DNA from: Marchantia polymorpha subsp. ruderalis
Taxonomy: Eukaryota > Streptophyta > Marchantiopsida > Marchantiales > Marchantiaceae
Assembly: GCA_037833965.1 (NCBI GenBank)
Contig: AP031357.1
Span: forward strand, 1,632,001 to 1,696,000
DNA length: 64,000 nt
Direction of reading: 5' to 3'
The notes under the pieces are model-generated. The model ran no database searches and was not told the origin of the DNA. It was given only the letters and a program-made list of their open reading frames with translations. Below are positions 6,658 to 26,049 of this stretch, one piece after another. The translations under genes and the position numbers were made by a program. Positions within the stretch are counted from its first letter, which is position 1; the number at the start of each line of letters is the position of its first letter.

Positions 6658-6673
6658 AATTGAGGGGGGAGCA
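6658..6673 (+). promoter_or_regulatory. Polypurine tract of element A
   Basis: AATTGAGGGGGGAGCA lies immediately before the 3' LTR start TGTGGTAAC and 20 bp after the pol stop. In this superfamily the tract primes plus-strand DNA synthesis. Elements B and Z have closely related tracts at the same place. Confidence 0.85.
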
Positions 6674-8511: not shown

Positions 8512-8760
8512 TGTAATAACCCACCAAAGGCTAAAACTGCAGTATGGTGGTAAAAAGATCGAACCCACAGGGACAGAGGCAACACACAGAGTAAAAGTGT
8601 CACGTTTAACAGACTTTTGTAGAGTTTGAATTCTAGGCGACTGTCACTCCCAGAAATATTGCAGTGCTCGACTCGGAGGCTCGACTCGGAGGAGGATCTC
8701 GACTCGGAGGATGCTCGGAGGATGCACGGTACAGCGTGGTCACTCAACACACACACACAC

Positions 8761-9725
8761 TGTAATAACCCACTAAAGGCTAAAACTGCAATATAGTGGT
8801 AGAAAGGTCGAACCCACAGGGACAGAGGAACACACAGGGTACAAAGTGTCACGTTTTAACAGACTATTGAGGAGTTTGAATTCTCAGGCAACTGTCACTC
8901 CCAGAAATACTGCAAGTGTCCACTCGGAGCGCACTCGGAGGTCGCACAGTGCAGCGTAACACACACACACACACACTTGAAACTACAGAAACACAACCCA
9001 GAGATCCGTTAGGACCTCTACTTCAAGATTTCAGGGGGAAAGTCTCTCACGAGCACACTCGGCAAAGCTGCGGGCAGTGACTTCCAACTCCGGCTTTTAC
9101 AACGCTTCCACTAGCTTGCTGCTAGTGTAGGAAACCCGGTTTGGACTACCTACTTCGGATCGAAGTCACTCAGACGCGGTGAACAACACTCTCAACTCAC
9201 AAAACGCGCAGAGAACACAGGTCCGCACTGAAGGACTCACTGTGAAACATTCCAGTAACACAACAACAGTCTATTGAAGAGTTTGAATTCTCAGGCACTT
9301 GTCATTCCCAGAAATACTACAGGGGTTACCCTCAAGGCACCTGCTGCAGCGTAACCTGAATTTACAACCAAGGCTTACACGAAGTAGCAAAACTTCACTT
9401 TGGCATTAAGGGGAAAAATCCCAAAGGAGTACAATCAGAAAGACACACTCGAAGGTGTAGGGGCGAAACTGTTCAAGTATCTAACTAGTCACTGGCTCTG
9501 AGCATCGGCAGTCACCCGCAGGTGCAGATCCGAACTACTCAAGTCTCTAACCAATGTACTAGCTCTGAACATTCGGCCGCAGGCCTTCAGCTACAAAATG
9601 CGGAACGCTAAGTTGTAACTCCTCATGCGTGGTGACAGAACTCAAGGACACAAACACGCAAAGGAAATGGGTTCCTGATCTGCACTTCTGATGGGAAAGA
9701 ACCCCAGGCAAAACGCCTGGAACTA
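8761..9725 (-). other. R-U5 region of the F1 LTR (no gene)
   Basis: Non-coding stretch between the TATA box and the LTR end. It contains an (AC)n tract near 8958-8976. It also holds two diverged copies of one motif about 400 bp apart: 8868-8958 and 9272-9362 share the GAGTTTGAATTCTCAGGCA and CCCAGAAATACT words and end in CAGCGTAAC. A perfect hairpin (CCAGGC/GCCTGG) lies at 9704-9720, next to the TATA box. Confidence 0.6.
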
Positions 9726-9732
9726 TTTTATA
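9726..9732 (-). promoter_or_regulatory. TATA box of the F1 LTR (left copy of element B)
   Basis: TATAAAA on the minus strand, 37 bp after the stop of the LTR ORF. The sequence and position are kept in most LTRs of the window (4421, 20912, 33768, 42017, 44551, 51097, 51822, 61861), so it is the best candidate for the promoter of the genomic RNA. It places the LTR ORF in U3. Confidence 0.65.
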
Positions 9733-9768
9733 CCTTCTAAGTCCTACCTAACACTACACTGCACTACG

Positions 9769-12700
9769 CTACACGCCTGCACGGAACCACGCTACACTGC
9801 ACTCCGCGGAACCTGTACTGCGTCTCCTGCGCGGCCGACTGCCGCGCACTAACTCCCTACCCTGCCACTCTTCCGCTCGACTGCGCAGTCCCAACCGCTG
9901 CAACGCCGCGGACACCTCCCCCTCGAGGGCGGACATGGTATCCTGTGCCTTCGACAGAAAGGCCTCGAGCTTCTTCGCTACCTTCCGCCGACTCCTACTA
10001 TCGCCTGACAACAACCCGGCTGCGCGCAATTCAAACTCACGCAGTGTGAGTTTCTCCTGCGCCTTCACTTCCCAGTGGGCGTAGCCCTTGAGACAGTGGG
10101 CGACTCGCCTCGCCGTCTCCACCTTCGTGCGATCCGCCTCCTTCCTGCGATCCTCTTCAATCGTCACTAATTGCGATTTGGCTTCGGCACGTTGCGCTCT
10201 CAATTCGCCACACTCTGACTGTAACCTGCGGATTAATTCTTCATCCGCCTGCCGTGCGAGCTGACATTGTTCCAACAACCGCGTCTGTCGCACGAGCTCC
10301 TCTGACAAAATCCGATTCTGGGCCTGCTCAGAATCGAGTGCTTCCTTGACCTTCACCTGCTCCTTGGTGAGCTCGCCCAGTTTCTCATCCTTCATCTTCT
10401 CGGAGTGCTTGTAGAATTTTTGATTAAGCTTGTACTGTCCCCACAAGCACTCATGCTTCTCCTTCAAGTCCCTCAACTCCTGGTCCACTCTAGCTAATAG
10501 CTTGCTGGTGTGGACTTTAGTGCGAGTCCGCCTGCGCACTAACTCAATGTAAGATCCCGGCTGGAGTGGTTCGGCGTATTTATCGACCTTGCGATCCAAG
10601 TACCGCAGCAACGGAATCACCTGCTCAGAGAGCGCCGCCGCCGACGCTCCAACAATTTCCTCCTCCTCCTCCTCGGTGTCTTCTGCTCCTGACATTTCTT
10701 CCGTGGAGCCTCCGTCGTCATCATCCGAGTGGAGAATTTCAGTCGCCATTGATTGCGTCGGCGACTGCCCCGAGTGGGGCTGCACGTCGTCGACGTGTGC
10801 TGCCTGCGAAGGCACGGCTGCAGCCTCGCTGCTCGTCGCCAAAATGTCTAAGGCGGAAGGCGAATGTACCCGTGCGGCATCCCCGTCTCTCGCTTGTTGA
10901 TGGTCTACCGCATCCTCTCTGTCGCCGTCGTCCGTCGCCGAAGGCGATTGAGCGGAGGGTGGCTGCGCGGGGTTGGATTGCGCATCGCGCATCGAGATTT
11001 CATCCCGCGGACAGTCACTCCGCTCCTCCGTCTGCTGCTCCCTCGATCGGTCCGTGGGGGCTGTGCCCGGCCCGTGCGCAGGCGCATTTGCTGGCGCCTT
11101 GTCCGCTGCAGGCGTAGCGCCGCGGACATCTATCGCCGAAGGCGACATGGCCGGGGGCCGCACGCCCGATGTTCCTTGGCCTATAGGCCCTACCGCCGAA
11201 GGCGCATCTATCGGCGGACTTCCCGCCGATGGTGCAGCCTCCGCACGCTCTCTGCTCGTATCTCCTCGGCTCGAAGGCCCTGGCGCCGAAGGCGCGAATT
11301 GCGGCGCGTGGTGCGCCGGAGGGTCTGGCCCCGAGGGCCGGTGTCTCGTAGGCGGTTCTTCCGCCGGCTCCTTCCCCTTCCTACGTTGGAACGGGGGTGA
11401 TTCTTGCCTGTGCACAGGCGGCACGTGCGGAGGTGTCCTGTGCACAGGCGACCTGTGCACAGGCGAGCGCCTGTGCACAGGCGGACTGCTCCTTCCCACG
11501 CGTAAGCGTAGATCCACGTCCACTTGTGTTCGCCGGTCCGCGGAGGCTCGTCCGTCCGCGGAGGTTCGCCTGTGCGCAAACGGAACCTCTGTCCGCATCG
11601 CACGTGGTAACTCCGGAGGCCCTTGGCCCGTAGGCGGCCTCTCTCCCGACGAGGTTGCAGCGTGGCCCGTCGCTCCTGCGGTCGTCCGCGCTTCCTCTCG
11701 CCTCTCTGGCGACGCACTTCCTATCTCCGTCGCAATCGTCGCCGTGTCTGCACTGTCAGCTGGTAACACCAGTCTGCGTGCCTTCTGCTTCGGCCGGCTG
11801 TATGGCTCGCACAGCGGCCGCGGTCGAATAGGAGCAGAGAGTTCTTGATGCTGCTCCTCTTCGGACTCTTCCCTCCATCGCCGCTTCCGCGGCACTCGCG
11901 CTGCAGGGGTGTGTCTCCCTTCGTCTCTCCGTCTTGATGGGGTAGAAGTCGGGGACTCCTCTGCGTCAGTATCGACCTCGTTCTCCCGCACATACTTCCC
12001 GGGATGGTCGATGGACAATGGCGGAAAATGTTCAAGCTCCGCCGCTGTCAAACAATTCCGCTGTCGATAAAAATTGATGAGGAAAGGAGAAAGATGGTTT
12101 AGAGTTCCCCCCTTCTCCTCAAACGCGTGCTGTCGCATCACCCTGTGCAGGATGCTCGCCCAGTGAATTGGAGTTCCCTCGATGACGCACTCCACAAAAG
12201 AGACCTGCCACAATGTGATGTAGCAGGCGCGGTGCGGCTGCAGTAATTGCATCAGCGCCGCGGACAAAGTCCGGCGAAATCGATCCTTGTAATCACGGGT
12301 CCTGTACCCATTCTTGGTTGACCTCCCGGTCTTGAACAGCTCCACAAATTGCGCCTCTTCTTGCTTGGTCACCTTGATGCTCTCACTGTCGAAAAGGAGA
12401 TGCCCTGGCATGCCAGCACATCTTCCCAACGCCTGCGCCCAATCTTGGACTGTCCACCGGTCAACATGCGGACGCAATCCGCGCGAGGGTGGTCCCTGTG
12501 GCTCTAGCCACTCGCGCACCATATTCGCGCAGATGTAATTCCATCCCCATAGCAAGAAATCGAGCTTTCTTGCTATTAAGCGCTCTTCGAAAGCGCGCAG
12601 CCCGTTCTGCGGTAGGCGAAGTGGCACCATCCGCAATCTGCTCGGTCTCGTCATTGCGTTCCTGGGGTTCGCTCGCCCGCTCATTCTACTTCCGCACTGT

Positions 12701-12906
12701 CCGCGTTTCTTTCTCTCTCGGCAAACTCTAATCGTTCTCAATTCCAAATCACGCGCACTCACTTCTCCCTCAATCAACAAGAAATCTCCTGTGCGACGAC
12801 GACGAGAATGGTCCGCAGCCAGCAGATGGATGCGCGCAGCGCGCACAAGAGATTGGAATCGCGAATTCAAGAATGGGACGCTCTCCGCCGCCCGGTCGAA
12901 GGTCAT
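9769..12906 (-). CDS. LTR-encoded protein (U3 ORF), copy in 3' LTR of element B
   Basis: Intact 1,045-codon ORF wholly inside the LTR, on the gag-pol strand. Residues 1-84 are a basic N-terminal extension. About 90-310 form a conserved globular domain (LLWGWNY near 118-124, RTRDYKDRFRR near 202-212, then a hydrophobic helix-rich part). About 311-720 are Pro/Arg/Ser-rich and disordered, with PVHR repeats. About 720-758 are acidic, and about 800-935 are a heptad-rich coiled coil, followed by a conserved basic tail. No transmembrane helix, zinc finger or catalytic motif is seen. The globular part faintly recalls the putative plant transposon protein domain found with Athila-type elements; that is an impression only. 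Met85 aligns with the start of the F2 homologue and is an alternative start, but the 84-codon extension is also open and ungapped in element Z. The function is unknown. Confidence 0.85.
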   Translation of the reverse strand: MTFDRAAESVPFLNSRFQSLVRAARIHLLAADHSRRRRTGDFLLIEGEVSARDLELRTIRVCRERKKRGQCGSRMSGRANPRNAMTRPSRLRMVPLRLPQNGLRAFEERLIARKLDFLLWGWNYICANMVREWLEPQGPPSRGLRPHVDRWTVQDWAQALGRCAGMPGHLLFDSESIKVTKQEEAQFVELFKTGRSTKNGYRTRDYKDRFRRTLSAALMQLLQPHRACYITLWQVSFVECVIEGTPIHWASILHRVMRQHAFEEKGGTLNHLSPFLINFYRQRNCLTAAELEHFPPLSIDHPGKYVRENEVDTDAEESPTSTPSRRRDEGRHTPAARVPRKRRWREESEEEQHQELSAPIRPRPLCEPYSRPKQKARRLVLPADSADTATIATEIGSASPERREEARTTAGATGHAATSSGERPPTGQGPPELPRAMRTEVPFAHRRTSADGRASADRRTQVDVDLRLRVGRSSPPVHRRSPVHRSPVHRTPPHVPPVHRQESPPFQRRKGKEPAEEPPTRHRPSGPDPPAHHAPQFAPSAPGPSSRGDTSRERAEAAPSAGSPPIDAPSAVGPIGQGTSGVRPPAMSPSAIDVRGATPAADKAPANAPAHGPGTAPTDRSREQQTEERSDCPRDEISMRDAQSNPAQPPSAQSPSATDDGDREDAVDHQQARDGDAARVHSPSALDILATSSEAAAVPSQAAHVDDVQPHSGQSPTQSMATEILHSDDDDGGSTEEMSGAEDTEEEEEEIVGASAAALSEQVIPLLRYLDRKVDKYAEPLQPGSYIELVRRRTRTKVHTSKLLARVDQELRDLKEKHECLWGQYKLNQKFYKHSEKMKDEKLGELTKEQVKVKEALDSEQAQNRILSEELVRQTRLLEQCQLARQADEELIRRLQSECGELRAQRAEAKSQLVTIEEDRRKEADRTKVETARRVAHCLKGYAHWEVKAQEKLTLREFELRAAGLLSGDSRSRRKVAKKLEAFLSKAQDTMSALEGEVSAALQRLGLRSRAEEWQGRELVRGSRPRRRRSTGSAECSVAWFRAGV

Positions 12907-14150
12907 GGTCGGCTCTTGGTCGTGAAGAACGTCCCACTTGATGGCCGCGCCGGCTGTACGCTGGAACGGTCTTCGCTCTCACGCGTGGCTTCACGCTCCG
13001 CCGTCGTCGATTAAACTCTCACGCTCGAATTGGCGGATTTGAACTCCGCGAGCGTGTCACCCTCCGGACATGGGGGCGTAGCGCCGAAGGCGAGTTTTCC
13101 GCCTTGCGCGGTACACTTGTTCGTACCGCCCCTCGGCCAATCTCCTTCTGCCTTGACGCGTGTGTCCGCATGTCGGACAAAAATTCAACTCCTGCCTGTG
13201 CGCAGGCGGAAGCCTCGGTGGATCCTCCGCCGGTGCGGAACTCCATCCTCCTGTGCACAGGCGTTCGCCTGTGCGCAGGCGAATTTCGTCCGCGGCGCTG
13301 CGCTGGCGCGGAAGGCGTTGACCGTGGTCAGCCGTCTCCGTCCAATCTGTCCGTTCCTTGTCTCTCCGTCGGCGCTTCCGCCGCCGCAACTCCGTCCGTC
13401 CAAGAGCGCATCCACCCGTGCCGTCCGCACGGTCCGTACCTGTTGGATTACTCTGGCGGCTCTTCCGACGTACGCGGCGCTGCGCTGGCGCGGAAGGCGC
13501 CGTACACTTTCTACCTCACAAGGCGCATTTCTAGGGCCCAAGGCGGATTTTCCGCCGACGCCGAAGTGCCTGTGCGCAGGCGAACGCCTGTGCGTAGGCG
13601 GACTTCGCACCTTCCCTAACCCTACTTCGCCTGTGCACAGGCGAACGCCTTCGTCCGCGCATAGGACAAAACTTGATTCCGCCTTCCGCGTAGGCGGAAT
13701 TCGCGCCGGTGGCGAACTCCTTCCGCCGTAGGCGACCGCCTCCGTTTCTTCCAGTAGCGATAACTCCCTAAGTCCTCGTCCGTTCCAAGCGTTCTTGGGC
13801 TCGTTAGAATCAGCGCGTCGAGCTCTTTCCAACGGGACCCTAACTTGGTCAAGGCGCCCGAGGGTTGACCTAATTACGGGGGGTTTCCCTACAGCCGCGG
13901 ACGCAACCTCCGAAGGCGGATTTTGCGCCTTGCGCTGTAGAGATCCTAACTGCGGAGCTCGCAGGGAGGGTGGTGCCTGTCCTTACTGCGGCACCCCAAA
14001 TCCCAGATTCTACAAGATCCCTCGAGAATCCCCGCGATCTTCCGGATTCACTCTGTTTTGATGTACCGAAGGCTATTTACAATGCTGCCAGGGTACAGTT
14101 TTTCAAAAATGTTTTAATTTCCTCAAAATTGCCAAAAGTGGGGTACCACA
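12907..14150 (-). other. U3 leader of the F1 LTR (no gene), rich in palindromes
   Basis: About 1.24 kb between the LTR start and the LTR ORF. It holds many copies of CGCCTGTGCACAGGCG-like words (near 13196, 13250, 13268, 13570, 13628), of CGCCGAAGGCG-like words (near 13082, 13560), and GCGCTGGCGCGGAAGGCG words (13298, 13483). The promoter for the LTR ORF, if it has its own, should lie here. I see no clear TATA box at the expected distance. Confidence 0.6.
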
Positions 14151-14166
14151 TGCCCCCCTCCTCAAT
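14151..14166 (-). promoter_or_regulatory. Polypurine tract of element B
   Basis: On the minus strand the sequence reads TTGAGGAGGGGGGCA directly before the 3' LTR start TGTGGTACC. It is the primer site for plus-strand DNA synthesis and lies about 21 bp after the pol stop. Confidence 0.88.
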
Positions 14167-14187
14167 TGTGAGCGCCCACGCGAACAC

Positions 14188-17019
14188 TCACATGTGGTAT
14201 TTCTTCAACCGCCACCCGTTCACTCGGGTGCCTAACAAATCGCCGGCCAGGTCCGCAAGTTGGATGGATCCATTCGGGAAGACTTCGACAACCCTGTAAG
14301 GTCCCATCCACCTTAGGTGCAGTTTGCCTGGGAATCTGGCATGCCTGCTGTCGTAGAGCAATGCCAAATCACCCGCCTGCAGGAGTACCGGTTTGATCTT
14401 TTTATCGTATCTCTCCTTTCGGCGGAGCTGGATTTTCCTGGTGCGATCTTCGGCGTCTCTTCTCCTCTCATCCAGCAGCGTGACTTCCTGTAACCTGTAG
14501 AGCTGGCTCTCCTCTGCGCCCATCCTCTGCAAATCCAACGTTCGTTGGGTGGGTACTTCAAATTCGATCGGGAGGATCGGGTGTTGCCCATACACCAGAA
14601 AGTATGGTGTCTGTTTGGTCGTGATCTTCTCAGCTGTGCGGTACGCCCATAGAGCGGCTGCTAGCTTCGTATCCCAGTCGTGAGCGTGATTCACCGTGAC
14701 CTTGAGTAGTATTTTACACAGCAGACCATTGGACTTCTCCGTCAGTCCATTTGCCTTGGGATTGTAGGGAGTAGTCTTCCGGTGCTTGATGTGGAAATAC
14801 CGTGTCAGATCTTCGATGATCTGATTCAGAAAATGCGTGCCCCGGTCGCTGACTAGCTCTAAGGGACATCCGTAGCGTGTGATGATCGACTCAAACAAGA
14901 ACGCTGCCACTGTGGCAGCATCATCCTTTCTGGTGGCTCTGGCCTCTACCATTTTGGTGGCGTAGTCCGTTGCTACCAGAATGTAGCGCCTTCGTGTACT
15001 TCTAGTCACTGGTTGTATCGGCCCTACAAAGTCAATACCCCACTTTTCGAAAGGTGCTAGAGGCATGATGGGAGTCAGGGGCCAGCGTGTTGTAGGCGTC
15101 GGTCTCCCCGTCCTCTGGCAACTGTCGCACTTGCGGATGTAATCGAGAACATCCTTAAACATGGTCGGCCACCAATAACCCGCATTTAGGATCTTTGTGA
15201 CCGTGTTCCTGGTGGCATAGTGTACACCCGCCTCCTCTGTATGCATCGCACTCACTATTCTTGGTACTTCTGATTCCTCCAGGCATCTGCATAAACGCTC
15301 ATCCGCCATCTTCTTGAACAAAACCCCCTGCTGGAGTTGGTACGGGCCTGCCTTATGAATAAAGACAGTTCGCTGTTCCAAATCCATGCCTTCGGGACAC
15401 TGGAGGGTTAGCAGATATCGATACAGGTCGGCATAGCGGGACTCATGTCCTGCAGACAACTGAAATAACTCTTCATCTGGAAAATCGTCCACCAATTCCT
15501 CCTCTGTCGGCTGGGTCCATAGTCGGGACAAGTAATCCGCATTTTCGTGGTGCACCCCTTTCCTGGTCTGGACCGTGTAGGTGAACTCTTGTAGTAATAA
15601 CACCCACCTGGCGATTCGACCGGATAGGTCGGCTTTCTTGACTAGGTGTTGCAATGCGTAGTGGTCCACATGGAACACAAACTCGTAGCAGATTAGGTAG
15701 TGACGGAACTTTTTACAGGAGTACACCATCCCCAACGCTTCTCTCTCCGTCGTGGTGTAGTTCCGCTCTGCTAGAGACAGCTGTCGGCTCGCGAAGTAGA
15801 TCGGGTAGTCCTTTTTGTTGTCATCCTTTTGACTCAGTACTACACCGATGGCGAATGCCGATGTGTCAACGTAAACATGGAATGGTCGATTCCAGTCTGG
15901 ACTCCTTAGTACGGGAGCAGTCGTGAGTTTCGCTTTCAGAGCTTCAAACGCTGACTGCTGGTTCGCACCCCAAGCATAAGGCTCGTCCTTCTTCAACAAC
16001 TTGGTCAGGTCCGCCGCCAGTATTGCATACATGTGTATAAATCTTCGGTAGTAGCCCACATGACCCAGGAATGCTCGCAGCTCTCTTAGATTCGTGGGTG
16101 GCTCAAGCTCGAGTATAACCTTGACCTTCTCGATGTCCACCGCAAAGCCGTCTGCCGAGACCCGGTGACCCAACAAGATCCCACTAGTCATAAAGAAAAA
16201 GCACTTCTCGGGATGCAGTGATAAACTGCTCTCTCTACATTTATCGAAGGTCTGCTTCAAGTGACTTAGGTGTTCAGCCCGCTTCCCAAAGACACAGAAG
16301 TCATCTATGAATATTTCCAGGAACTTCCTCAGTTGTTCCTGAAAGATATTGGTCATCATCCGTTGAAAGGTGGCAGGCGCGTTGCACAGCCCGAAGGGCA
16401 TCTTGTGGTATGCGTAAGTTCCCCAGTCGGTTGTGAACGTAGTTTTATCCTTGTCCTGTTCACGGATAGACACCTGATTGTAACCTGAGAACCCATCCAG
16501 GAAGCTATAACATTCATGTCCTGCGACATGGTCTAGAATGGCATCCGTGAATGGTAACGGGTGATGATCCTTGCGTGTTGCTGCATTCAACTTCCTGAAA
16601 TCCTGACACACTCGTATTTTACCCGTCAACTTCTTGGGTACGATAACAATCGGCGACACCCACTCGCTGCTGAGCACAGGGTAAATAATACCAGCGCTCA
16701 AGTACTTATCTATCTCCTCTTTCACTAGCAAGGAGTACTTCGGGTTGAGGCGATACTGGCGCTGTCGTATGGGTACTGAGTCGTCCAGTAAATCGATACG
16801 GTGTTCCCCATACCGTGCGGGTATCCCCTTCATGTCTTCGATCTTCCAGGCGAAAACGTCGACATAATGGCTAAGGAAGGCCTGTACTTTCCTTAGCTCG
16901 TCTCCTCTCACTGCGCTTGATACCTTCAAGCACTTGCCGGGACTGAGTTGTACTTCGTGACAGTCACTAGGGTCGACAATGCCCTCAGTGTGACTCGTCT
17001 CACTCCTTCCCAGTCCCAC
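14188..17019 (-). CDS. pol: pol: reverse transcriptase, RNase H and integrase of element B
   Basis: Intact frame of 943 codons. The first codon given (GTG at 17019) is only the first possible start; the frame is continuous with gag-pro through the UAG at 17029-17031, so the natural product is probably a Gag-Pol fusion. RT spans about 110-275, with D175 in FLDGF and D239/D240 in the IDDF box. RNase H spans about 375-480 (D385, E427, D452). Integrase has the HHCC finger (H593, H600, C631, C634) and the catalytic triad D663, D725, E761 with 35 residues between the last two. It ends in a GPYRVVEVFPNGSIQL and NGWRLKKYHM module of the Athila/Tat type. The frame has no stop or frameshift. It copies the RNA into DNA and inserts it. 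Confidence 0.95.
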   Translation of the reverse strand: MGLGRSETSHTEGIVDPSDCHEVQLSPGKCLKVSSAVRGDELRKVQAFLSHYVDVFAWKIEDMKGIPARYGEHRIDLLDDSVPIRQRQYRLNPKYSLLVKEEIDKYLSAGIIYPVLSSEWVSPIVIVPKKLTGKIRVCQDFRKLNAATRKDHHPLPFTDAILDHVAGHECYSFLDGFSGYNQVSIREQDKDKTTFTTDWGTYAYHKMPFGLCNAPATFQRMMTNIFQEQLRKFLEIFIDDFCVFGKRAEHLSHLKQTFDKCRESSLSLHPEKCFFFMTSGILLGHRVSADGFAVDIEKVKVILELEPPTNLRELRAFLGHVGYYRRFIHMYAILAADLTKLLKKDEPYAWGANQQSAFEALKAKLTTAPVLRSPDWNRPFHVYVDTSAFAIGVVLSQKDDNKKDYPIYFASRQLSLAERNYTTTEREALGMVYSCKKFRHYLICYEFVFHVDHYALQHLVKKADLSGRIARWVLLLQEFTYTVQTRKGVHHENADYLSRLWTQPTEEELVDDFPDEELFQLSAGHESRYADLYRYLLTLQCPEGMDLEQRTVFIHKAGPYQLQQGVLFKKMADERLCRCLEESEVPRIVSAMHTEEAGVHYATRNTVTKILNAGYWWPTMFKDVLDYIRKCDSCQRTGRPTPTTRWPLTPIMPLAPFEKWGIDFVGPIQPVTRSTRRRYILVATDYATKMVEARATRKDDAATVAAFLFESIITRYGCPLELVSDRGTHFLNQIIEDLTRYFHIKHRKTTPYNPKANGLTEKSNGLLCKILLKVTVNHAHDWDTKLAAALWAYRTAEKITTKQTPYFLVYGQHPILPIEFEVPTQRTLDLQRMGAEESQLYRLQEVTLLDERRRDAEDRTRKIQLRRKERYDKKIKPVLLQAGDLALLYDSRHARFPGKLHLRWMGPYRVVEVFPNGSIQLADLAGDLLGTRVNGWRLKKYHM

Positions 17020-17022
17020 AGT

Positions 17023-17031
17023 TAATTGCTA
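17023..17031 (-). promoter_or_regulatory. Putative stop-codon readthrough site UAG CAA UUA between gag-pro and pol (element B)
   Basis: On the minus strand the codons at the boundary are GAA TAG CAA TTA ACT GTG GGA. The frame before and after TAG is the same. The nine bases equal those in element A and match the tobamovirus leaky-stop context UAG-CAR-YYA. This would give a large excess of Gag-Pro over Gag-Pol, as retroelements need. Confidence 0.75.
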
Positions 17032-19860
17032 TTCGTCTTCCGGCTGAATAGCTTCCGGCTCTTCTTCTTCTCCCACCGAACAGCAGGCAACGAATCCCAC
17101 GAAGTAATCGGATTCGGTACCACTGGAATCCGATCGCGCGGTCGACTCACTGTCCTCGCCCGATGTGTAACCTGCACTTGTCGATGGGGTCTCTCCTTCG
17201 TGCCTGACCCTATTCCAGGGCACCGTAATGGTTTTGGTCGGTTCCGAAGGGTGAGGAAACTTAAGGCGATGTCTTCGCCAATCACATCTGACTTGTGCAC
17301 CATATAGCCATGGTCGCCCGAGCAGGACGTCATAGCCCTGCTTCATCATCGGTTGAAGGATGATATACGTCAACCGAAAGTCCGCACCCCCGATGGTTGT
17401 CTTGACATTGCGCAGCATACCTGCAGGCATTCTCCGCGTCTGATCCGCTAATCTCAACACACGCTTCGAGGGTTCGTATTGACTGAACCCCAAGGCTCTC
17501 GCTGTATCCTCCGTCATTATGTTGACTCCTGATCCAGAGTCGATTGGCACTCTGCGTACACAACACCCTGTTATTTCCACATCGATCTCGGGTGGCCCTT
17601 GGTCTTCGCTCTCCACTTGATATACTTGAGAGGATGTGGATGCGCGCGGCTTCCGCGGATGCCGTAGCGAAAGCATCAACATTCTCCGATACGTCTTATT
17701 GTCCTCCAAGAGCTGCTTGAACGTGATGTTCACTTTTCGACTCCCGAGATCTTCAACCAAGTCATAGTGGGCGCGTTGGGTCGCCGGGGTCGGCGACGTT
17801 CTGCGAGGTTCCACGGTGGCTGCCAACTTCGCTCCAAGGGAGGATGTCAAGTCTGGCCGCGGTGGGTCCTTTTGCGTGCGGATCGCTTCCTTCAGCAGGT
17901 TGGCTACCTCGTTGCGGATATCCGGAGCATAGTCCCGTTTCAGTAGGCGCACTGGCTCGTCCTCGACTGCTGTCTGGGGGCGCACTGCTGGTGCCTCCCG
18001 CGTAGCCGAAGACTTCCGAGCAGGTCGCAAGTCGGACTTGCTGGATGTCTTCTCCTTTCCTTTTCCCGTCCGGTCGTCGGGTCTCCGTTCGTGCTTGCGA
18101 GTGTCACGCTCTTGCTCCTTCGATTTCTTGGAACTACGAGTTTCGACCCGTGCGCACATGACCTCTTCAGCCGGCCATTCTTCGTCTTCGCCATCCCCGT
18201 CTGAACCTACTTCGACCTGGTTAACTTGCACGTCCTCCTTGGCAGGAGTGTTCACAAATCGTACCACTGGCCGAGGGATTGGTGGCTGATCACACTCTGG
18301 CGCAGTGTGCCCGACCTTCTTGCAATTACTACATGTCGGAGCATAATCGTTTCGCCTTTTTGGATGGGGACACTGCGGTGAGAAGTGCCCAACTTCCCCG
18401 CAATTATAACAAGCTCGCGGTGGCGGTGGGTCAAACGTCCCTGGAGGTGCTCTCCGCCTCACGGGTACTGTAGTGGCCCGATCCACCGGAATATATCGTG
18501 GAACTTGCATTGCTGAGACTGCAGGAGGGGTAGGAACCGACTGGACGGCGTAGGCTGTCTCTTCGCTAGCCTCTCCATAGTACTGAGGGTGCTCTCCATA
18601 GTACGGTTGCGCCCACTCTACTGCGTTGACTGGATATGACGGCCGGGTGGTAAGGCACTCGGTGTTTGCATGTCCCACCGCCCCGCACGTAGTACACCAT
18701 AAGTTCGCTCGCACTCTCCCGGGTGATTTTCTGCGATCATGCCCGCCTACCACTTGAACCTTGAGATCGGCGAAGTCCTTCACAAGGGTCTCCATCTTCG
18801 AAGCTATATCTCCCGGCGCTCTGTCCGTAGTCACTCGTCGGATGCCCTTTTTCTTCGCTGACCCATGCTTCTTCCTCTTCTTCTCCTCCTCCGACGATGA
18901 GGTTTCCTCTTCTTCGGATGAAGAACGGTTCTCGTCCGAAGACGATTCCTCCGATGACGGAGTTGTACCTCTACGTCGTCTTCGCCCTCCCTTCGGTTTT
19001 CGCTCCTTCGACTCCCGTCTCTCTCTCCCTCTTCGGTTGAGAGTGGAAGTTTCGAAGGCTTCTGCCGATGCAATCACATCCTCAATAGTGTCGCACTTGC
19101 TACGTCGGCAAAAAGTCTCCATCTCCCGAGTTAAACCGGTCACGTACCAATCCACAGCTTGTTGTACCGAGAAAGGGGACCCTGGTCCTGTTTTCGGTAT
19201 TCTGTCAAGGAGGTCCAGAAATCTCTCAGTGTAGTCACGCAGACTCTCCTTCTTCTCTCGCTGCAAATTACGTAACTTTGTCAAAACCCGGCTGTCGTAG
19301 CCGAGCTCGCGGAAGCGGCGAAGGAACTTCTCCTTCAGTTGGGCCCATGTTGTCAACCCAGTCGGATCGATGCTCTCGTGATTGTACCAACTCCTCGCTT
19401 TCTTCCGCAGAAGGCTTGGAAAGATCCTTAGTCGGTCGTCGTCTGCGATCTCGCGATTGGCAATAGACACCGACTCGAATAACTTGATGTATGAATCTGC
19501 ATCGTCGTCATCCCCACTCCCTTTGTACTTCGGGTAGGAATGTTTAGTAATCGGCTGAGGTAGCCGCACATTGGCTTGTCCGTCCGCCATCGGTGTGTCT
19601 GTCGACGGTTCTCGGGCGGTCGGTTCTACTTCACTAGGCGGGTCCGTGCAAGGAATATCTAGTAGAACTGTAAGCACCAAGTTTGGTTCCGAGTCGTCGG
19701 GGGTAGGTTCCCCAAGGATGTCGGCCGAACTAGGCTTAGGTACTCTTTTTGGTGTTTTCTTGTTTTGACGCCGTGTCTCTTCCACGGCCTTCTCTGAATC
19801 TCGTCGGAACTTGCGGACAGCTCTAGCACTTAGGTTGCTCCCGCCAGCCCCAGTCGACAT
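17029..19860 (-). CDS. gag-pro: gag-pro: capsid/nucleocapsid and aspartic protease of element B
   Basis: Intact frame of 943 codons with ATG at 19860, only 86 bp inside the 5' LTR border. The capsid-type retrotransposon Gag domain covers about 125-270. A basic and acid-serine linker follows (about 285-340). Three CCHC zinc knuckles of spacing C-x2-C-x4-H-x4-C lie at about 389-402, 484-497 and 510-523. The retropepsin domain has D774-S-G and the later LLGRPWL segment (about 846-852). The product packages the RNA, forms the particle and cleaves the polyprotein. It ends in TAG followed by CAA TTA, in frame with pol. Confidence 0.95.
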   Translation of the reverse strand: MSTGAGGSNLSARAVRKFRRDSEKAVEETRRQNKKTPKRVPKPSSADILGEPTPDDSEPNLVLTVLLDIPCTDPPSEVEPTAREPSTDTPMADGQANVRLPQPITKHSYPKYKGSGDDDDADSYIKLFESVSIANREIADDDRLRIFPSLLRKKARSWYNHESIDPTGLTTWAQLKEKFLRRFRELGYDSRVLTKLRNLQREKKESLRDYTERFLDLLDRIPKTGPGSPFSVQQAVDWYVTGLTREMETFCRRSKCDTIEDVIASAEAFETSTLNRRGRERRESKERKPKGGRRRRRGTTPSSEESSSDENRSSSEEEETSSSEEEKKRKKHGSAKKKGIRRVTTDRAPGDIASKMETLVKDFADLKVQVVGGHDRRKSPGRVRANLWCTTCGAVGHANTECLTTRPSYPVNAVEWAQPYYGEHPQYYGEASEETAYAVQSVPTPPAVSAMQVPRYIPVDRATTVPVRRRAPPGTFDPPPPRACYNCGEVGHFSPQCPHPKRRNDYAPTCSNCKKVGHTAPECDQPPIPRPVVRFVNTPAKEDVQVNQVEVGSDGDGEDEEWPAEEVMCARVETRSSKKSKEQERDTRKHERRPDDRTGKGKEKTSSKSDLRPARKSSATREAPAVRPQTAVEDEPVRLLKRDYAPDIRNEVANLLKEAIRTQKDPPRPDLTSSLGAKLAATVEPRRTSPTPATQRAHYDLVEDLGSRKVNITFKQLLEDNKTYRRMLMLSLRHPRKPRASTSSQVYQVESEDQGPPEIDVEITGCCVRRVPIDSGSGVNIMTEDTARALGFSQYEPSKRVLRLADQTRRMPAGMLRNVKTTIGGADFRLTYIILQPMMKQGYDVLLGRPWLYGAQVRCDWRRHRLKFPHPSEPTKTITVPWNRVRHEGETPSTSAGYTSGEDSESTARSDSSGTESDYFVGFVACCSVGEEEEPEAIQPEDE

Positions 19861-19906
19861 TCACCGAGCATGGCTGCTCGTAAAAACCCCGGTGTTGACG
19901 CAACTG

Positions 19907-19924
19907 TCCCCGGCAGCGGCGCCA
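19907..19924 (-). promoter_or_regulatory. Primer-binding site (tRNA-Asp type) of element B
   Basis: The minus strand reads TGGCGCCGCTGCCGGGGA. The plus strand therefore looks like the 3' end of a plant tRNA-Asp with its CCA, with one base different from the common plant form. The site starts 22 bp from the LTR border, more than the few bases usual in LTR elements. The spacer 19925-19946 can pair with itself (AAGAAG ... CTTCTT). Confidence 0.85.
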
Positions 19925-20889
19925 AAAAGAAGTTGTCGGCTTCTTATGTAATAACCCACTAAAGGCTAAAACTGCAATATAGTGGTAGAAAGGTCGAACC
20001 CACAGGGACAGAGGAACACACAGGGTACAAAGTGTCACGTTTTAACAGACTATTGAGGAGTTTGAATTCTCAGGCAACTGTCACTCCCAGAAATACTGCA
20101 AGTGTCCACTCGGAGCGCACTCGGAGGTCGCACAGTGCAGCGTAACACACACACACACACACTTGAAACTACAGAAACACAACCCAGAGATCCGTTAGGA
20201 CCTCTACTTCAAGATTTCAGGGGGAAAGTCTCTCACGAGCACACTCGGCAAAGCTGCGGGCAGTGACTTCCAACTCCGGCTTTTACAACGCTTCCACTAG
20301 CTTGCTGCTAGTGTAGGAAACCCGGTTTGGACTACCTACTTCGGATCGAAGTCACTCAGACGCGGTGAACAACACTCTCAACTCACAAAACGCGCAGAGA
20401 ACACAGGTCCGCACTGAAGGACTCACTGTGAAACATTCCAGTAACACAACAACAGTCTATTGAAGAGTTTGAATTCTCAGGCACTTGTCATTCCCAGAAA
20501 TACTACAGGGGTTACCCTCAAGGCACCTGCTGCAGCGTAACCTGAATTTACAACCAAGGCTTACACGAAGTAGCAAAACTTCACTTTGGCATTAAGGGGA
20601 AAAATCCCAAAGGAGTACAATCAGAAAGACACACTCGAAGGTGTAGGGGCGAAACTGTTCAAGTATCTAACTAGTCACTGGCTCTGAGCATCGGCAGTCA
20701 CCCGCAGGTGCAGATCCGAACTACTCAAGTCTCTAACCAATGTACTAGCTCTGAACATTCGGCCGCAGGCCTTCAGCTACAAAATGCGGAACGCTAAGTT
20801 GTAACTCCTCATGCGTGGTGACAGAACTCAAGGACACAAACACGCAAAGGAAATGGGTTCCTGATCTGCACTTCTGATGGGAAAGAACC

Positions 20890-20906
20890 CCAGGCAAAAC
20901 GCCTGG
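20890..20906 (-). other. Conserved hairpin next to the TATA box
   Basis: Perfect stem of 6 bp (CCAGGC with GCCTGG) and a 5-base loop, starting about 12 bases after the first T of the TATA box. In the LTRs at 33780, 42004, 51079 and 61841 the stem is CAAGGC/GCCTTG, so one pair is exchanged from C-G to A-T on both sides. Confidence 0.5.
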
Positions 20907-20911
20907 AACTA

Positions 20912-20918
20912 TTTTATA
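20912..20918 (-). promoter_or_regulatory. TATA box of the 5' LTR of element B
   Basis: TATAAAA on the minus strand, placed so that transcription would start about 25-32 bp further on and run through R-U5, the PBS and gag-pol. It is the likely promoter of the genomic RNA. Confidence 0.65.
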
Positions 20919-20954
20919 CCTTCTAAGTCCTACCTAACACTACACTGCACTACG

Positions 20955-23900
20955 CTACACGCCTGCACGGAACCACGCTACACTGCACTCCGCGGAACCT
21001 GTACTGCGTCTCCTGCGCGGCCGACTGCCGCGCACTAACTCCCTACCCTGCCACTCTTCCGCTCGACTGCGCAGTCCCAACCGCTGCAACGCCGCGGACA
21101 CCTCCCCCTCGAGGGCGGACATGGTATCCTGTGCCTTCGACAGAAAGGCCTCGAGCTTCTTCGCTACCTTCCGCCGACTCCTACTATCGCCTGACAACAA
21201 CCCGGCTGCGCGCAATTCAAACTCACGCAGTGTGAGTTTCTCCTGCGCCTTCACTTCCCAGTGGGCGTAGCCCTTGAGACAGTGGGCGACTCGCCTCGCC
21301 GTCTCCACCTTCGTGCGATCCGCCTCCTTCCTGCGATCCTCTTCAATCGTCACTAATTGCGATTCGGCTTCGGCACGTTGCGCTCTCAATTCGCCACACT
21401 CTGACTGTAACCTGCGGATTAATTCTTCATCCGCCTGCCGTGCGAGCTGACATTGTTCCAACAACCGCGTCTGTCGCACGAGCTCCTCTAACAAAATCCG
21501 ATTCTGGGCCTGCTCAGAATCGAGTGCTTCCTTGACCTTCACCTGCTCCTTGGTGAGCTCGCCCAGTTTCTCATCCTTCATCTTCTCGGAGTGCTTGTAG
21601 AATTTTTGATTAAGCTTGTACTGTCCCCACAAGCACTCATGCTTCTCCTTCAAGTCCCTCAACTCCTGGTCCACTCTAGCTAATAGCTTGCTGGTGTGGA
21701 CTTTAGTGCGAGTCCGCCTGCGCACTAACTCAATGTAAGATCCCGGCTGGAGTGGGTCGGCGTATTTATCGACCTTGCGATCCAAGTACCGCAGCAACGG
21801 AATCACCTGCTCAGAGAGCGCCGCCGCCGACGCTCCAACAATTTCCTCCTCCTCCTCCTCGGTGTCTTCTGCTCCTGACATTTCTTCCGTGGAGCCTCCG
21901 TCGTCATCATCCGAGTGGAGAATTTCAGTCGCCATTGATTGCGTCGGCGACTGCCCCGAGTGGGGCTGCACGTCGTCGACGTGTGCTGCCTGCGAAGGCA
22001 CGGCTGCAGCCTCGCTGCTCGTCGCCAAAATGTCTAAGGCGGAAGGCGAAAGTACCCGTGCGGCATCCCCGTCTCTCGCTTGTTGATGGTCTACCGCATC
22101 CTCTCTGTCGCCGTCGTCCGTCGCCGAAGGCGATTGAGCGGAGGGTGGCTGCGCGGGGTTGGATTGCGCATCGCGCATCGAGATTTCATCCCGCGGACAG
22201 TCACTCCGCTCCTCCGTCTGCTGCTCCCTCGATCGGTCCGTGGGGGCTGTGCCCGGCCCGTGCGCAGGCGCATTTGCCGGCGCCTTGTCCGCTGCAGGCG
22301 TAGCGCCGCGGACATCTATCGCCGAAGGCGACATGGCCGGGGGCCGCACGCCCGATGTTCCTTGGCCTATAGGCCCTACCGCCGAAGGCGCATCTATCGG
22401 CGGACTTCCCGCCGATGGTGCAGCCTCCGCACGCTCTCTGCTCGTATCTCCTCGGCTCGAAGGCCCTGGCGCCGAAGGCGCGAATTGCGGCGCGTGGTGC
22501 GCCGGAGGGTCTGGCCCCGAGGGCCGGTGTCTCGTAGGTGGTTCTTCCGCCGGCTCCTTCCCCTTCCTACGTTGGAACGGGGGTGATTCTTGCCTGTGCA
22601 CAGGCGGCACGTGCGGAGGTGTCCTGTGCACAGGCGACCTGTGCACAGGCGAGCGCCTGTGCACAGGCGGACTGCTCCTTCCCACGCGTAAGCGTAGATC
22701 CACGTCCACTTGTGTTCGCCGGTCCGCGGAGGCTCGTCCGTCCGCGGAGGTTCGCCTGTGCGCAAACGGAACCTCTGTCCGCATCGCACGTGGTAACTCC
22801 GGAGGCCCTTGGCCCGTAGGCGGCCTCTCTCCCGACGAGGTTGCAGCGTGGCCCGTCGCTCCTGCGGTCGTCCGCGCTTCCTCTCGCCTCTCTGGCGACG
22901 CACTTCCTATCTCCGTCGCAATCGTCGCCGTGTCTGCACTGTCAGCTGGTAACACCAGTCTGCGTGCCTTCTGCTTCGGCCGGCTGTATGGCTCGCACAG
23001 CGGCCGCGGTCGAATAGGAGCAGAGAGTTCTTGATGCTGCTCCTCTTCGGACTCTTCCCTCCATCGCCGCTTCCGCGGCACTCGCGCTGCAGGGGTGTGT
23101 CTCCCTTCGTCTCTCCGTCTTGATGGGGTAGAAGTCGGGGACTCCTCTGCGTCAGTATCGACCTCGTTCTCCCGCACATACTTCCCGGGATGGTCGATGG
23201 ACAATGGCGGAAAATGTTCAAGCTCCGCCGCTGTCAAACAATTCCGCTGTCGATAAAAATTGATGAGGAAAGGAGAAAGATGGTTTAGAGTTCCCCCCTT
23301 CTCCTCAAACGCGTGCTGTCGCATCACCCTGTGCAGGATGCTCGCCCAGTGAATTGGAGTTCCCTCGATGACGCACTCCACAAAAGAGACCTGCCACAAT
23401 GTGATGTAGCAGGCGCGGTGCGGCTGCAGTAATTGCATCAGCGCCGCGGACAAAGTCCGGCGAAATCGATCCTTGTAATCACGGGTCCTGTACCCATTCT
23501 TGGTTGACCTCCCGGTCTTGAACAGCTCCACAAATTGCGCCTCTTCTTGCTTGGTCACCTTGATGCTCTCACTGTCGAAAAGGAGATGCCCTGGCATGCC
23601 AGCACATCTTCCCAACGCCTGCGCCCAATCTTGGACTGTCCACCGGTCAACATGCGGACGCAATCCGCGCGAGGGTGGTCCCTGTGGCTCTAGCCACTCG
23701 CGCACCATATTCGCGCAGATGTAATTCCATCCCCATAGCAAGAAATCGAGCTTTCTTGCTATTAAGCGCTCTTCGAAAGCGCGCAGCCCGTTCTGCGGTA
23801 GGCGAAGTGGCACCATCCGCAATCTGCTCGGTCTCGTCATTGCGTTCCTGGGGTTCGCTCGCCCGCTCATTCTACTTCCGCACTGTCCGCGTTTCTTTCT

Positions 23901-24092
23901 CTCTCGGCAAACTCTAATCGTTCTCAATTCCAAATCACGCGCACTCACTTCTCCCTCAATCAACAAGAAATCTCCTGTGCGACGACGACGAGAATGGTCC
24001 GCAGCCAGCAGATGGATGCGCGCAGCGCGCACAAGAGATTGGAATCGCGAATTCAAGAATGGGACGCTCTCCGCCGCCCGGTCGAAGGTCAT
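20955..24092 (-). CDS. LTR-encoded protein (U3 ORF), copy in 5' LTR of element B
   Basis: Second intact copy of the 1,045-residue protein, with the same domain order as the copy at 9769-12906. I see four amino-acid differences between them (His/Leu in the disordered part, Glu/Asp near the start of the coiled-coil part, Ser/Leu and Lys/Glu inside it). All lie outside the conserved N-terminal domain. This copy lies upstream of the TATA box that should drive gag-pol, so it cannot be read from the genomic RNA and would need a promoter in the U3 leader. The 3' copy could be read as a third ORF after pol. Confidence 0.85.
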   Translation of the reverse strand: MTFDRAAESVPFLNSRFQSLVRAARIHLLAADHSRRRRTGDFLLIEGEVSARDLELRTIRVCRERKKRGQCGSRMSGRANPRNAMTRPSRLRMVPLRLPQNGLRAFEERLIARKLDFLLWGWNYICANMVREWLEPQGPPSRGLRPHVDRWTVQDWAQALGRCAGMPGHLLFDSESIKVTKQEEAQFVELFKTGRSTKNGYRTRDYKDRFRRTLSAALMQLLQPHRACYITLWQVSFVECVIEGTPIHWASILHRVMRQHAFEEKGGTLNHLSPFLINFYRQRNCLTAAELEHFPPLSIDHPGKYVRENEVDTDAEESPTSTPSRRRDEGRHTPAARVPRKRRWREESEEEQHQELSAPIRPRPLCEPYSRPKQKARRLVLPADSADTATIATEIGSASPERREEARTTAGATGHAATSSGERPPTGQGPPELPRAMRTEVPFAHRRTSADGRASADRRTQVDVDLRLRVGRSSPPVHRRSPVHRSPVHRTPPHVPPVHRQESPPFQRRKGKEPAEEPPTRHRPSGPDPPAHHAPQFAPSAPGPSSRGDTSRERAEAAPSAGSPPIDAPSAVGPIGQGTSGVRPPAMSPSAIDVRGATPAADKAPANAPAHGPGTAPTDRSREQQTEERSDCPRDEISMRDAQSNPAQPPSAQSPSATDDGDREDAVDHQQARDGDAARVLSPSALDILATSSEAAAVPSQAAHVDDVQPHSGQSPTQSMATEILHSDDDDGGSTEEMSGAEDTEEEEEEIVGASAAALSEQVIPLLRYLDRKVDKYADPLQPGSYIELVRRRTRTKVHTSKLLARVDQELRDLKEKHECLWGQYKLNQKFYKHSEKMKDEKLGELTKEQVKVKEALDSEQAQNRILLEELVRQTRLLEQCQLARQADEELIRRLQSECGELRAQRAEAESQLVTIEEDRRKEADRTKVETARRVAHCLKGYAHWEVKAQEKLTLREFELRAAGLLSGDSRSRRKVAKKLEAFLSKAQDTMSALEGEVSAALQRLGLRSRAEEWQGRELVRGSRPRRRRSTGSAECSVAWFRAGV

Positions 24093-25336
24093 GGTCGGCT
24101 CTTGGTCGTGAAGAACGTCCCACTTGATGGCCGCGCCGGCTGTACGCTGGAACGGTCTTCGCTCTCACGCGCGGCTTCACGCTCCGCCGTCGTCGATTAA
24201 ACTCTCACGCTCGAATTGGCGGATTTGAACTCCGCGAGCGTGTCACCCTCCGGACATGGGGGCGTAGCGCCGAAGGCGAGTTTTCCGCCTTGCGCGGTAC
24301 ACTTGTTCGTACCGCCCCTCGGCCAATCTCCTTCTGCCTTGACGCGTGTGTCCGCATGTCGGACAAAAATTCAACTCCTGCCTGTGCGCAGGCGGAAGCC
24401 TCGGTGGATCCTCCGCCGGTGCGGAACTCCATCCTCCTGTGCACAGGCGTTCGCCTGTGCGCAGGCGAATTTCGTCCGCGGCGCTGCGCTGGCGCGGAAG
24501 GCGTTGACCGTGGTCAGCCGTCTCCGTCCAGTCTGTCCGTTCCTTGTCTCTCCGTCGGCGCTTCCGCCGCCGCAACTCCGTCCGTCCAAGAGCGCATCCA
24601 CCCGTGCCGTCCGCACGGTCCGTACCTGTTGGATTACTCTGGCGGCTCTTCCGACGTACGCGGCGCTGCGCTGGCGCGGAAGGCGCCGTACACTTTCTAC
24701 CTCACAAGGCGCATTTCTAGGGCCCAAGGCGGATTTTCCGCCGACGCCGAAGTGCCTGTGCGCAGGCGAACGCCTGTGCGTAGGCGGACTTCGCGCCTTC
24801 CCTAACCCTACTTCGCCTGTGCACAGGCGAACGCCTTCGTCCGCGCATAGGACAAAACTTGATTCCGCCTTCCGCGTAGGCGGAATTCGCGCCGGTGGCG
24901 AACTCCTTCCGCCGTAGGCGACCGCCTCCGTTTCTTCCAGTAGCGATAACTCCCTAAGTCCTCGTCCGTTCCAAGCGTTCTTGGGCTCGTTAGAATCAGC
25001 GCGTCGAGCTCTTTCCAACGGGACCCTAACTTGGTCAAGGCGCCCGAGGGTTGACCTAATTACGGGGGGTTTCCCTACAGCCGCGGACGCAACCTCCGAA
25101 GGCGGATTTTGCGCCTTGCGCTGTAGAGATCCTAACTGCGGAGCTCGCAGGGAGGGTGGTGCCTGTCCTTACTGCGGCACCCCAAATCCCAGATTCTACA
25201 AGATCCCTCGAGAATCCCCGCGATCTTCCGGATTCACTCTGTTTTGATGTACCGAAGGCTATTTACAATGCTGCCAGGGTACAGTTTTTCAAAAATGTTT
25301 TAATTTCCTCAAAATTGCCAAAAGTGGGGTACCACA
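24093..25336 (-). other. U3 leader of the 5' LTR of element B (no gene)
   Basis: Same content as 12907-14150: about 1.24 kb without a supported gene, dense in CGCCTGTGCACAGGCG and CGCCGAAGGCG words. The end nearest the LTR start is AT-rich (25255-25336), unlike the GC-rich remainder. Confidence 0.6.
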
Positions 25337-26049
25337 CACACACACCTGAAACTGGCAAAAAGCACAACTCGGAGGTCGGTCAGGACCTCCGCTTCGGATT
25401 TCAGGAGGAAAGTGTCTCAAAAGTTCACTTAGAGGTTCTGCAGGTAGTGCCTCCCACTCCGGCTTTTACTGCCCTTCCGCCAGGAACTAGCGTAGGGTAC
25501 CCGGACTGGACTTCCCACTTCGGAACGAAGCCTCTTCATACGCCGTGGACGTCACCCTCGACTATCACACCAAACGCAGGGAGTGCAGACCCGACTGAGA
25601 ACTTAACTGAGACACGATCCAGTAACACACACACAACCTGAATTACAAACCAAGGTTTACACGAAGTAATAAAACTTCACATTGGCATTCAGGGGAAACT
25701 TCCCGTAGGAGTACAATCAGGATATGTCACTCGAAGGAGTAAGGGGGAACTGTTCAAGTATCTAACTCGCAGCCGGCTCTGAGCATCAGAAATCACCCGC
25801 AGGTGCAGATCCGCACTACTCAAGTCTCTAACCGGGTGCTAGCTCTGAACATTCAGCCGAAGGCCTTCAACTACAACATACGGTAACTTCGCTATGCTGC
25901 AGCTTCTCTACGTGGTGCCAGGACCAAAATGCACAAACACGCCAAGAAAGTGAGTTCCTGATCTGCACTTCCGAAACTGGAAGAGTCCCAGGGCAAAACG
26001 CCTTGAACTACTTCATACCCTCAAAGATCCTAACTAGCACTACGCTATC
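25337..26049 (-). other. R-U5 of the F2 solo LTR after the element B insertion (no gene)
   Basis: Resumes with CACACACACCTGAAAC and matches 43873-44588 in the other F2 copy almost base for base. No ORF is supported. Sequence words are shared with the F1 R-U5 (for example the CACCCGCAGGTGCAGATCCG stretch), so the two LTR families are related here. Confidence 0.6.

What the first reader, a model, noticed from the sequence alone, without database searches (positions are those of the whole stretch)
8761..25336. Giant LTRs that carry a 1,045-codon ORF inside U3
Seen: both 5,390-bp LTRs of element B contain the same uninterrupted ORF on the gag-pol strand. It ends 37 bp before the only conserved TATA box of the LTR, so it lies in U3. 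Homologues are present in all other LTRs of the window long enough to hold it. Known: mouse mammary tumour virus encodes Sag in U3, and HIV nef overlaps U3; a large U3-coded protein is rare in plant LTR elements. Inference: the ORF is copied with the LTR at every retrotransposition and travels with every solo LTR. It would be a third ORF at the 3' end of the genomic RNA and could also be expressed from solo LTRs. This is the best candidate for an undescribed system here.
Basis: partly seen in the sequence, partly recalled or inferred. Interest (0 to 1): 0.88.

Follow-up and report, generated by a model that had tools for sequence, protein, structure and literature searches.

The report
Liverwort retrotransposon with LTR-borne protein gene
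A jumping element in a liverwort genome carries a large protein gene inside its terminal repeats, so each insertion starts with two copies of the gene and leftover single repeats still carry one; the gene is kept by selection, but its job is unknown.

Summary
Element B (8761-25336, minus strand) is a young Ty3/gypsy element; its 5,390-bp LTRs are 99.83% identical. Each carries the same long ORF, ending 37 nt before the only TATA box. The borders are secure: 10 of 22 full B-family LTRs read elsewhere in the genome, and 8 of 12 in a second family, sit between identical 5-bp sequences. Nine of those ten keep an intact ORF, though copies were chosen by protein score. The ORF lies inside the LTR in three families (about 39-56% protein identity).

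It is a real gene: variants shared by B copies in the N-terminal domain are 0 nonsynonymous to 23 synonymous, and dN/dS of codons 85-310 between subfamilies is 0.13. The conserved start is codon 85, so the protein has about 961 residues.

No informative Pfam, PDB or fold match. All 81 named relatives are from Marchantia polymorpha. Expression was not testable.

Best reading: an accessory gene in the 3' "env position" that became U3 because the polypurine tract directly follows pol; like MMTV sag in layout only. My searches listed no plant precedent.

The parts
19947..25336 (-). 5' LTR of element B (5,390 bp, TGTGGT...ATTACA in sense)
   Evidence: PBS-type sequence follows it; flank class 5' (L002)
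8761..14150 (-). 3' LTR of element B (5,390 bp)
   Evidence: polypurine tract precedes it; flank class 3' (L001)
20955..24092 (-). U3 ORF, 5' LTR copy, 1,045 codons from the first ATG; conserved part from codon 85 is 20955-23840
9769..12906 (-). U3 ORF, 3' LTR copy, 1,045 codons; conserved part from codon 85 is 9769-12654 (about 961 aa)
11953..12654 (-). conserved N-terminal domain, codons 85-318
   Evidence: dN/dS 0.13 for codons 85-310; alignment A4 of 22 sequences
9726..9732 (-). TATA box, LTR position 4419, 37 nt after the ORF stop (second copy at 20912-20918)
9704..9720 (-). 17-nt palindrome (6-bp stem) just after the TATA box; family B has CCAGGC/GCCTGG, family C has CAAGGC/GCCTTG, a paired change
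19907..19924 (-). primer binding site candidate TGGCGCCGCTGCCGGGGA, 22 nt after the 5' LTR (tRNA-Asp type, name recalled)
17029..19860 (-). gag plus protease ORF (943 aa)
14188..17019 (-). pol ORF (RT, RNase H, integrase; 943 aa), same frame as gag after one UAG codon
14151..14163 (-). polypurine tract GAGGAGGGGGGCA directly before the 3' LTR; 24 nt lie between the pol stop and the tract, 37 nt between the pol stop and the LTR
25337..29967 (-). first part of a family C solo LTR (TSD GTCTT) with an intact ORF 26050-28893; element B is inserted in it
8512..8760 (-). remaining end of the same family C solo LTR on the other side of element B

Best explanation
Element B and its relatives are Ty3/gypsy retrotransposons without a detected chromodomain, in a Marchantia-type liverwort, whose third gene lies wholly inside U3. 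Shown: borders, position, sense orientation, purifying selection, several families, survival in solo LTRs. Inferred: (1) the genomic RNA starts about 30 nt after the TATA box, reads R-U5-gag-(UAG)-pol, and carries one copy of the third gene near its 3' end, the position that retroviruses use for env, nef or sag and that plant elements use for sense 3' extra ORFs; (2) the gene became part of the LTR because the polypurine tract that primes plus-strand DNA sits directly after pol, so everything downstream counts as U3 and is copied into both LTRs; (3) the protein, with a conserved N-terminal domain, a proline-rich linker, basic clusters, a charged and possibly coiled C-terminal part and no membrane segment, is a trans-acting accessory factor of the element's own cycle and is not an envelope; (4) it is made from a separate message started or spliced in the U3 leader.
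For: LTR pair, ORF and TATA positions. LTRs with identical ends between identical 5-bp sequences: 10 of 22 full B LTRs, 8 of 12 family C LTRs (read by eye from the printed ends), and L049. Stop-to-TATA distance 37, 33 and 21 nt in B, C and L049. Frame-specific constraint in B copies against a real reference copy: variants in at least 2 copies 40 N: 109 S where 101: 48 is expected (p = 1e-24), N-terminal domain 0: 23; the other two frames give ratios of 2.24 and 4.06. Between-family dN/dS 0.13 for codons 85-310 (B against Z) and 0.25 for the N-terminal domain (B against C); gag control 0.14, pol control 0.05 in one comparison, dS saturated in the other. No gap columns in the ORF, against gaps in both flanking LTR parts, in the alignment of 22 LTRs. 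Gag, protease, RT, RNase H and integrase domains by Pfam, no chromodomain listed. No 19-residue window hydrophobic enough for a usual membrane span (maximum 1.14 in B, 1.29 in C; the usual threshold of about 1.6 is recalled).
Against: No transcript, start site or peptide was available. No promoter or splice acceptor conserved among families was found in the U3 leader; the one strong acceptor-like site is in family C only. Copies were picked by protein score, so intactness (24 of 28 B, 9 of 20 C) and the absence of gaps are biased upward. In family C the constraint among copies is weak: singletons 0.61, shared 0.64 (p = 0.05), and shared variants of its middle part give 1.22. Codons 1-84 are barely constrained; in B copies shared variants of codons 1-59 are 4 N: 2 S. 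The two AlphaFold models are poor (pLDDT 49.0 and 48.6), so no fold or biochemical function can be assigned.
Confidence: 0.72

Rival explanations
1. The real promoter lies at the start of the LTR, so the ORF is in R or the 5' leader and is the first gene of the genomic RNA, comparable to the 5' extra ORF (ORF0) of Retrosat2.
For: A 1,244-nt leader precedes the ORF in family B. The first 50 nt of the LTR and short leader blocks are similar between families. Plant promoters often lack TATA (recalled).
Against: The only TATA motif in the B LTR is after the stop. Its position and the palindrome after it are kept in three families and 9 window copies. The leader is the most variable part of the LTR (0.147 variable columns against 0.088 in the ORF and 0.088 after it) and holds 6, 19 and 11 ATGs in the three families.
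Confidence: 0.14
2. The ORF is an env-like gene for cell-to-cell movement, as proposed for some plant elements.
For: Sense orientation and position after pol match sense 3' extra ORFs (PMC7264820, parts 1 and 2 of 3 read).
Against: No membrane-span-like segment in B or C. None of the 10 Pfam families listed for 7 members at E up to 10 is an extra-ORF family (HMMER's filters drop most weak matches).
Confidence: 0.05
3. The ORF is not a gene: GC-rich composition or selection on DNA or RNA keeps the frame open.
For: The ORF is 60% GC, and its end borders the promoter.
Against: Shuffles reach 329 codons at most. Constraint is specific to frame 0 in B and, more weakly, in C, and is seen between families.
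Confidence: 0.02
4. A host gene was captured recently and rides along, or the LTR ORF is a host-serving domesticated gene.
For: Named relatives are known only from Marchantia.
Against: Three divergent families carry it in the same place. The genome search scored 44 dispersed B-type copies of 98-100% identity. No informative Pfam match.
Confidence: 0.05

Closest known systems
MMTV sag (superantigen gene in U3 of a betaretrovirus)
   Same: Most of a protein gene lies in U3, so it is copied into both LTRs; the paper notes that such LTRs are conserved across a wider range of viruses (PMC4667437, passages seen).
   Different: Host, protein and length differ. Sag is a membrane protein acting on immune cells (recalled). 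Here the whole coding region is inside U3 and the repeats are 4.1-5.4 kb.
Foamy virus tas/bel ORFs between env and LTR
   Same: 3'-terminal accessory ORFs that reach into the LTR (recalled), with an internal promoter named in the figure legend of PMC7828637 (passage seen).
   Different: They only partly overlap the LTR (recalled). No internal promoter has been shown here.
Sense extra ORFs (aORF-3S / eORF-3'F) of Athila, Bagy2 and SIRE elements
   Same: Sense ORF after pol, lineage-specific protein of unknown function (PMC7264820; PMC6317226 passages).
   Different: Those are described between pol and the 3' LTR. Here the polypurine tract precedes the ORF, which is therefore inside the repeat.
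Retrosat2/RIRE8 ORF0 (LTRs of about 3 kb or more plus an extra ORF)
   Same: Very long LTRs and a fast-evolving extra ORF of unclear function (PMC3485330 passages).
   Different: ORF0 lies upstream of gag-pol.

Membership tests
LTR retrotransposon, Ty3/gypsy | paired LTRs with TG..CA ends and 5-bp target duplications | tested here: met
   B's own duplication lies in a GT repeat and is weak evidence by itself
LTR retrotransposon, Ty3/gypsy | gag, protease, then RT - RNase H - integrase order | tested here: met
   Pfam domains in order
OTA (Athila/Tat) lineage | no chromodomain; tRNA-Asp-type PBS; branch position in an RT tree | tested here: inconclusive
   No chromodomain hit; PBS-like site 22 nt after the LTR, tRNA name recalled; no RT tree was built
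Tat clade | additional RNase H (aRH) domain | tested here: inconclusive
   Pfam shows one RNase H region, residues 350-479; a divergent second copy is not excluded
U3-encoded retroviral gene (MMTV sag type layout) | coding region inside U3 of both LTRs | tested here: met
   Position before the TATA box inside confirmed LTR borders; transcription start not measured
MMTV sag protein family | sequence homology to Sag | tested here: not met
   No Pfam match for B at E up to 10; the 81 named relatives are all from Marchantia polymorpha; no direct comparison with Sag was made
env-like genes of plant elements | transmembrane segments | tested here: not met
   hydropathy windows only
Known extra-ORF protein families (PF03078 Athila ORF-1, PF10536, PF04195, PF20167) | profile match | tested here: not met
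   None among the families listed for 7 members at E up to 10; PF20167 also gave nothing in the genome, but its control genomes gave nothing either; the PF03078 genome search did not complete

The most novel reading that the evidence does not exclude
Solo LTRs are not dead scars but dispersed single-gene units: each keeps a selected accessory gene (for example a helper or anti-silencing factor) that is expressed from its U3 leader and serves gag-pol elements in trans. LTR-LTR recombination would then turn proviruses into a distributed supply of that factor.
Probability: 0.13. Interest if true: 0.9.

Novelty: new variant of a known kind. Interest (0 to 1): 0.7.

Why it matters
LTRs are ordinarily regarded as non-coding (stated for retroviruses in PMC4667437), and surveys of plant elements describe extra ORFs in the internal region, so a selected gene in U3 is easily missed. 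If confirmed, it is a plant counterpart in layout to MMTV sag. It offers one reason for very long LTRs, shows that solo LTRs can keep coding capacity, and gives a test system (Marchantia is a laboratory plant) for what plant extra ORFs do. It also suggests that many 'hypothetical proteins' annotated in Marchantia polymorpha (81 named relatives) are pieces of such LTRs.

Tried and rejected
Fold assignment: two AlphaFold jobs (31- and 22-row alignments) gave mean pLDDT 49.0 and 48.6. Sequence search of the PDB with the protein and with A3: 0 matches at E <= 1. Viral contigs with A4: 49 pattern matches, no relative. PF20167 in the own genome: nothing, but its controls were silent too, so uninformative. 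Coiled coil: windows with about 3.5-residue periodicity above z = 3 start at residue 961 in B and 861 in C; two further B windows (521, 531) fall in the proline-rich linker, so this is only a hint. Splice acceptor before the ORF: found in family C only. Not-a-gene and wrong-border readings were rejected.

I saw capped listings (titles and starts of abstracts) and the papers named in this report. None of those listed showed a plant element with a gene inside the LTR; subscription papers and preprints are not held.

Full report
What is there. Element B spans 8761-25336 on the minus strand. Its two LTRs are 5,390 bp and differ at 9 sites with no gaps. In sense orientation the order is: LTR, a 22-nt spacer, a TGGCGCC-type primer site, gag plus protease, one UAG codon, pol in the same frame, a polypurine tract 24 nt after the pol stop, and the second LTR. 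Each LTR holds the ORF at LTR positions 1245-4382. The only TATA box is at 4419. By that box the ORF is entirely in U3. R would start about 30 nt further on (general rule, recalled), near a short palindrome that differs between families B and C by a paired change.

Borders. The genome (G000, 241 Mb in 9 contigs) gave 44 scored B-type ORF matches, 40 of them without a stop; this is a lower bound because only the best candidates are scored. I read 28 of these 44 places. 22 of the 28 have an LTR alignment longer than 5,000 bp, with the same ends. 10 of the 22 lie between identical 5-bp sequences: nine show no internal element sequence in the flanks read (about 250 and 490 bp), and one (L048) also shows a PBS-side match. 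Two more (L006, L033) show neither internal sequence nor a 5-bp duplication. The rest are 5' or 3' LTRs, two of them with internal matches on both sides. Nine of the ten have an intact ORF; L047 has a stop. L007 and L008 are the two LTRs of one element, 100% identical. Family C has its own 4,862-bp LTR with the ORF inside. Of 20 loci, 12 gave a near-full LTR; by my reading of the printed ends 8 of these 12 are TSD-flanked, one is a 5' LTR, one a 3' LTR, and two (L018, L020) are unresolved. Four of the 8 have an intact ORF, one more has a 3-nt in-frame insertion, and three have stops. The family C copy in the window is itself a solo LTR (TSD GTCTT) into which B is inserted. A third family, L049, has an LTR at 2807-6940 with TSD CACAT and a broken ORF whose stop is 21 nt before its TATA box.

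Is it a gene? In family B, variants against a real copy (L001; 26 others) found in two or more copies are 40 nonsynonymous and 109 synonymous; the same mutation types placed at random in the same ORF part predict 101 and 48. The N-terminal domain has 0 and 23. Singletons are 75 and 110 (ratio 0.31). The two wrong frames give 2.24 and 4.06 for shared variants (p values). Family C (reference L010; 19 others), with more decayed copies, gives 0.61 for singletons and 0.64 for shared variants, the latter at p = 0.05; its middle part gives 1.22 for shared variants. Between families, dN/dS in the N-terminal domain is 0.17 (B-Z, codons 60-310) and 0.25 (B-C); it is 0.22-0.70 in the middle and 0.25-0.48 in the C-terminal part over the pairs where dS is not saturated. 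Codons 85-310 give 0.13 and codons 1-84 give 0.67 (B-Z). Controls: gag 0.14, pol 0.05. The ORF is thus constrained like gag in its N-terminal domain and more loosely elsewhere.

What protein? B has no Pfam match at E up to 10. Ten weak families appear among the seven members scanned (best an extensin match of a Marchantia relative, E 0.00019, 21.8 bits against a cut-off of 105; CENP-K in two members; SKG6 in family C, E 0.013). They look like low-complexity or coiled-coil hits, and those with a printed cut-off are below it. There is no PDB match, and the models are too poor to interpret. Searches of 5.77 billion proteins found 4, 28 and 93 relatives. In one search, 81 carry a name, all from Marchantia polymorpha subsp. 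ruderalis, and 12 come from unnamed assemblies; a UniRef name beginning 'Integrase c' on one of them (P0085) fits an ORF next to pol. Layout: conserved N-terminal domain (codons 85-318), proline-rich middle, basic clusters, charged C-terminal part, no membrane-span-like segment.

How it most likely works. The polypurine tract fixes the left end of U3. Sense extra ORFs of Athila, Bagy2 and SIRE-type elements are described between pol and the 3' LTR (PMC7264820; PMC6317226). Here the tract follows pol directly, so the third gene is copied into both LTRs at each round, each new insertion carries two copies, and recombination between LTRs removes gag-pol but leaves the gene. A trans-acting accessory protein fits the constraint, the lack of membrane segments and the basic clusters, but this is inference. 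How it is expressed is open: a U3-leader promoter, splicing, or reinitiation. In a solo LTR the known TATA box lies after the ORF and points away from it, so expression there would need a promoter in the leader or read-in from outside.

Literature. Read: PMC7264820 (parts 1 and 2 of 3). Passages: PMC6317226, PMC3485330, PMC4667437, PMC7828637, PMC9985172, and, from hits that proved irrelevant, PMC11117352 and PMC8775202. PMC11963269: term search without matches. Listing only: PMC1654176, an antisense gene in the HIV-1 LTR. None of the eight answered searches listed a plant precedent, within their capped listings. The review says that plant extra ORFs are most frequent between pol and the 3' LTR, and the rice Retrosat2 ORF0 lies upstream of gag-pol.

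Verdict. Observation confirmed, border and selection doubts removed, start codon corrected, expression and function open.

Noticed in passing
window 17023-17031 (minus) and about 801-840 (plus): gag and pol share one frame, separated by a single UAG in the context UAG CAA UUA, which matches the tobamovirus-type readthrough signal (motif recalled); kept in a second element with 87% identical pol.
   Followed up: partly
window 19925-19946: A 22-nt spacer with a small inverted repeat (AAGAAG...CTTCTT) separates the LTR from the primer site; the same spacer, with one change each, follows the LTRs of L021 (family C) and of the copy ending at 57490.
   Followed up: partly
G000 C6:8281378, 8292566, 8303754; C4:7170582, 7181787; C2:29863752, 29882803, 29901854: Element 5' ends repeat at regular spacing (11,188 bp twice, 11,205 bp, and 19,051 bp twice), suggesting tandem element arrays that may share LTRs; L043 has internal sequence on both sides of one LTR.
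   Followed up: no
window 19560-19946 against LTRs: The PBS-gag start of element B is identical over 387 bp in 22 of the 40 scored places (its own included), while its LTRs have no closer relative than about 98.4% among 20 other full LTRs read; LTR and body may have different histories.
   Followed up: no
window 7730-8511 and 29968-33732: The family C solo LTR that hosts element B seems itself inserted in a plus-strand relative of the same ORF: three layers of nested elements of one kind.
   Followed up: partly
window 10973-11848 and 22159-23034 (plus): A 291-codon open frame lies antisense to the U3 ORF in both LTRs; probably a by-product of the codon make-up, not tested.
   Followed up: no
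family C U3 start (L010 positions 462-473): A strong splice-acceptor-like stretch (TTTTTTTTGCAG) 20 nt into the LTR, absent from B and L049.
   Followed up: partly
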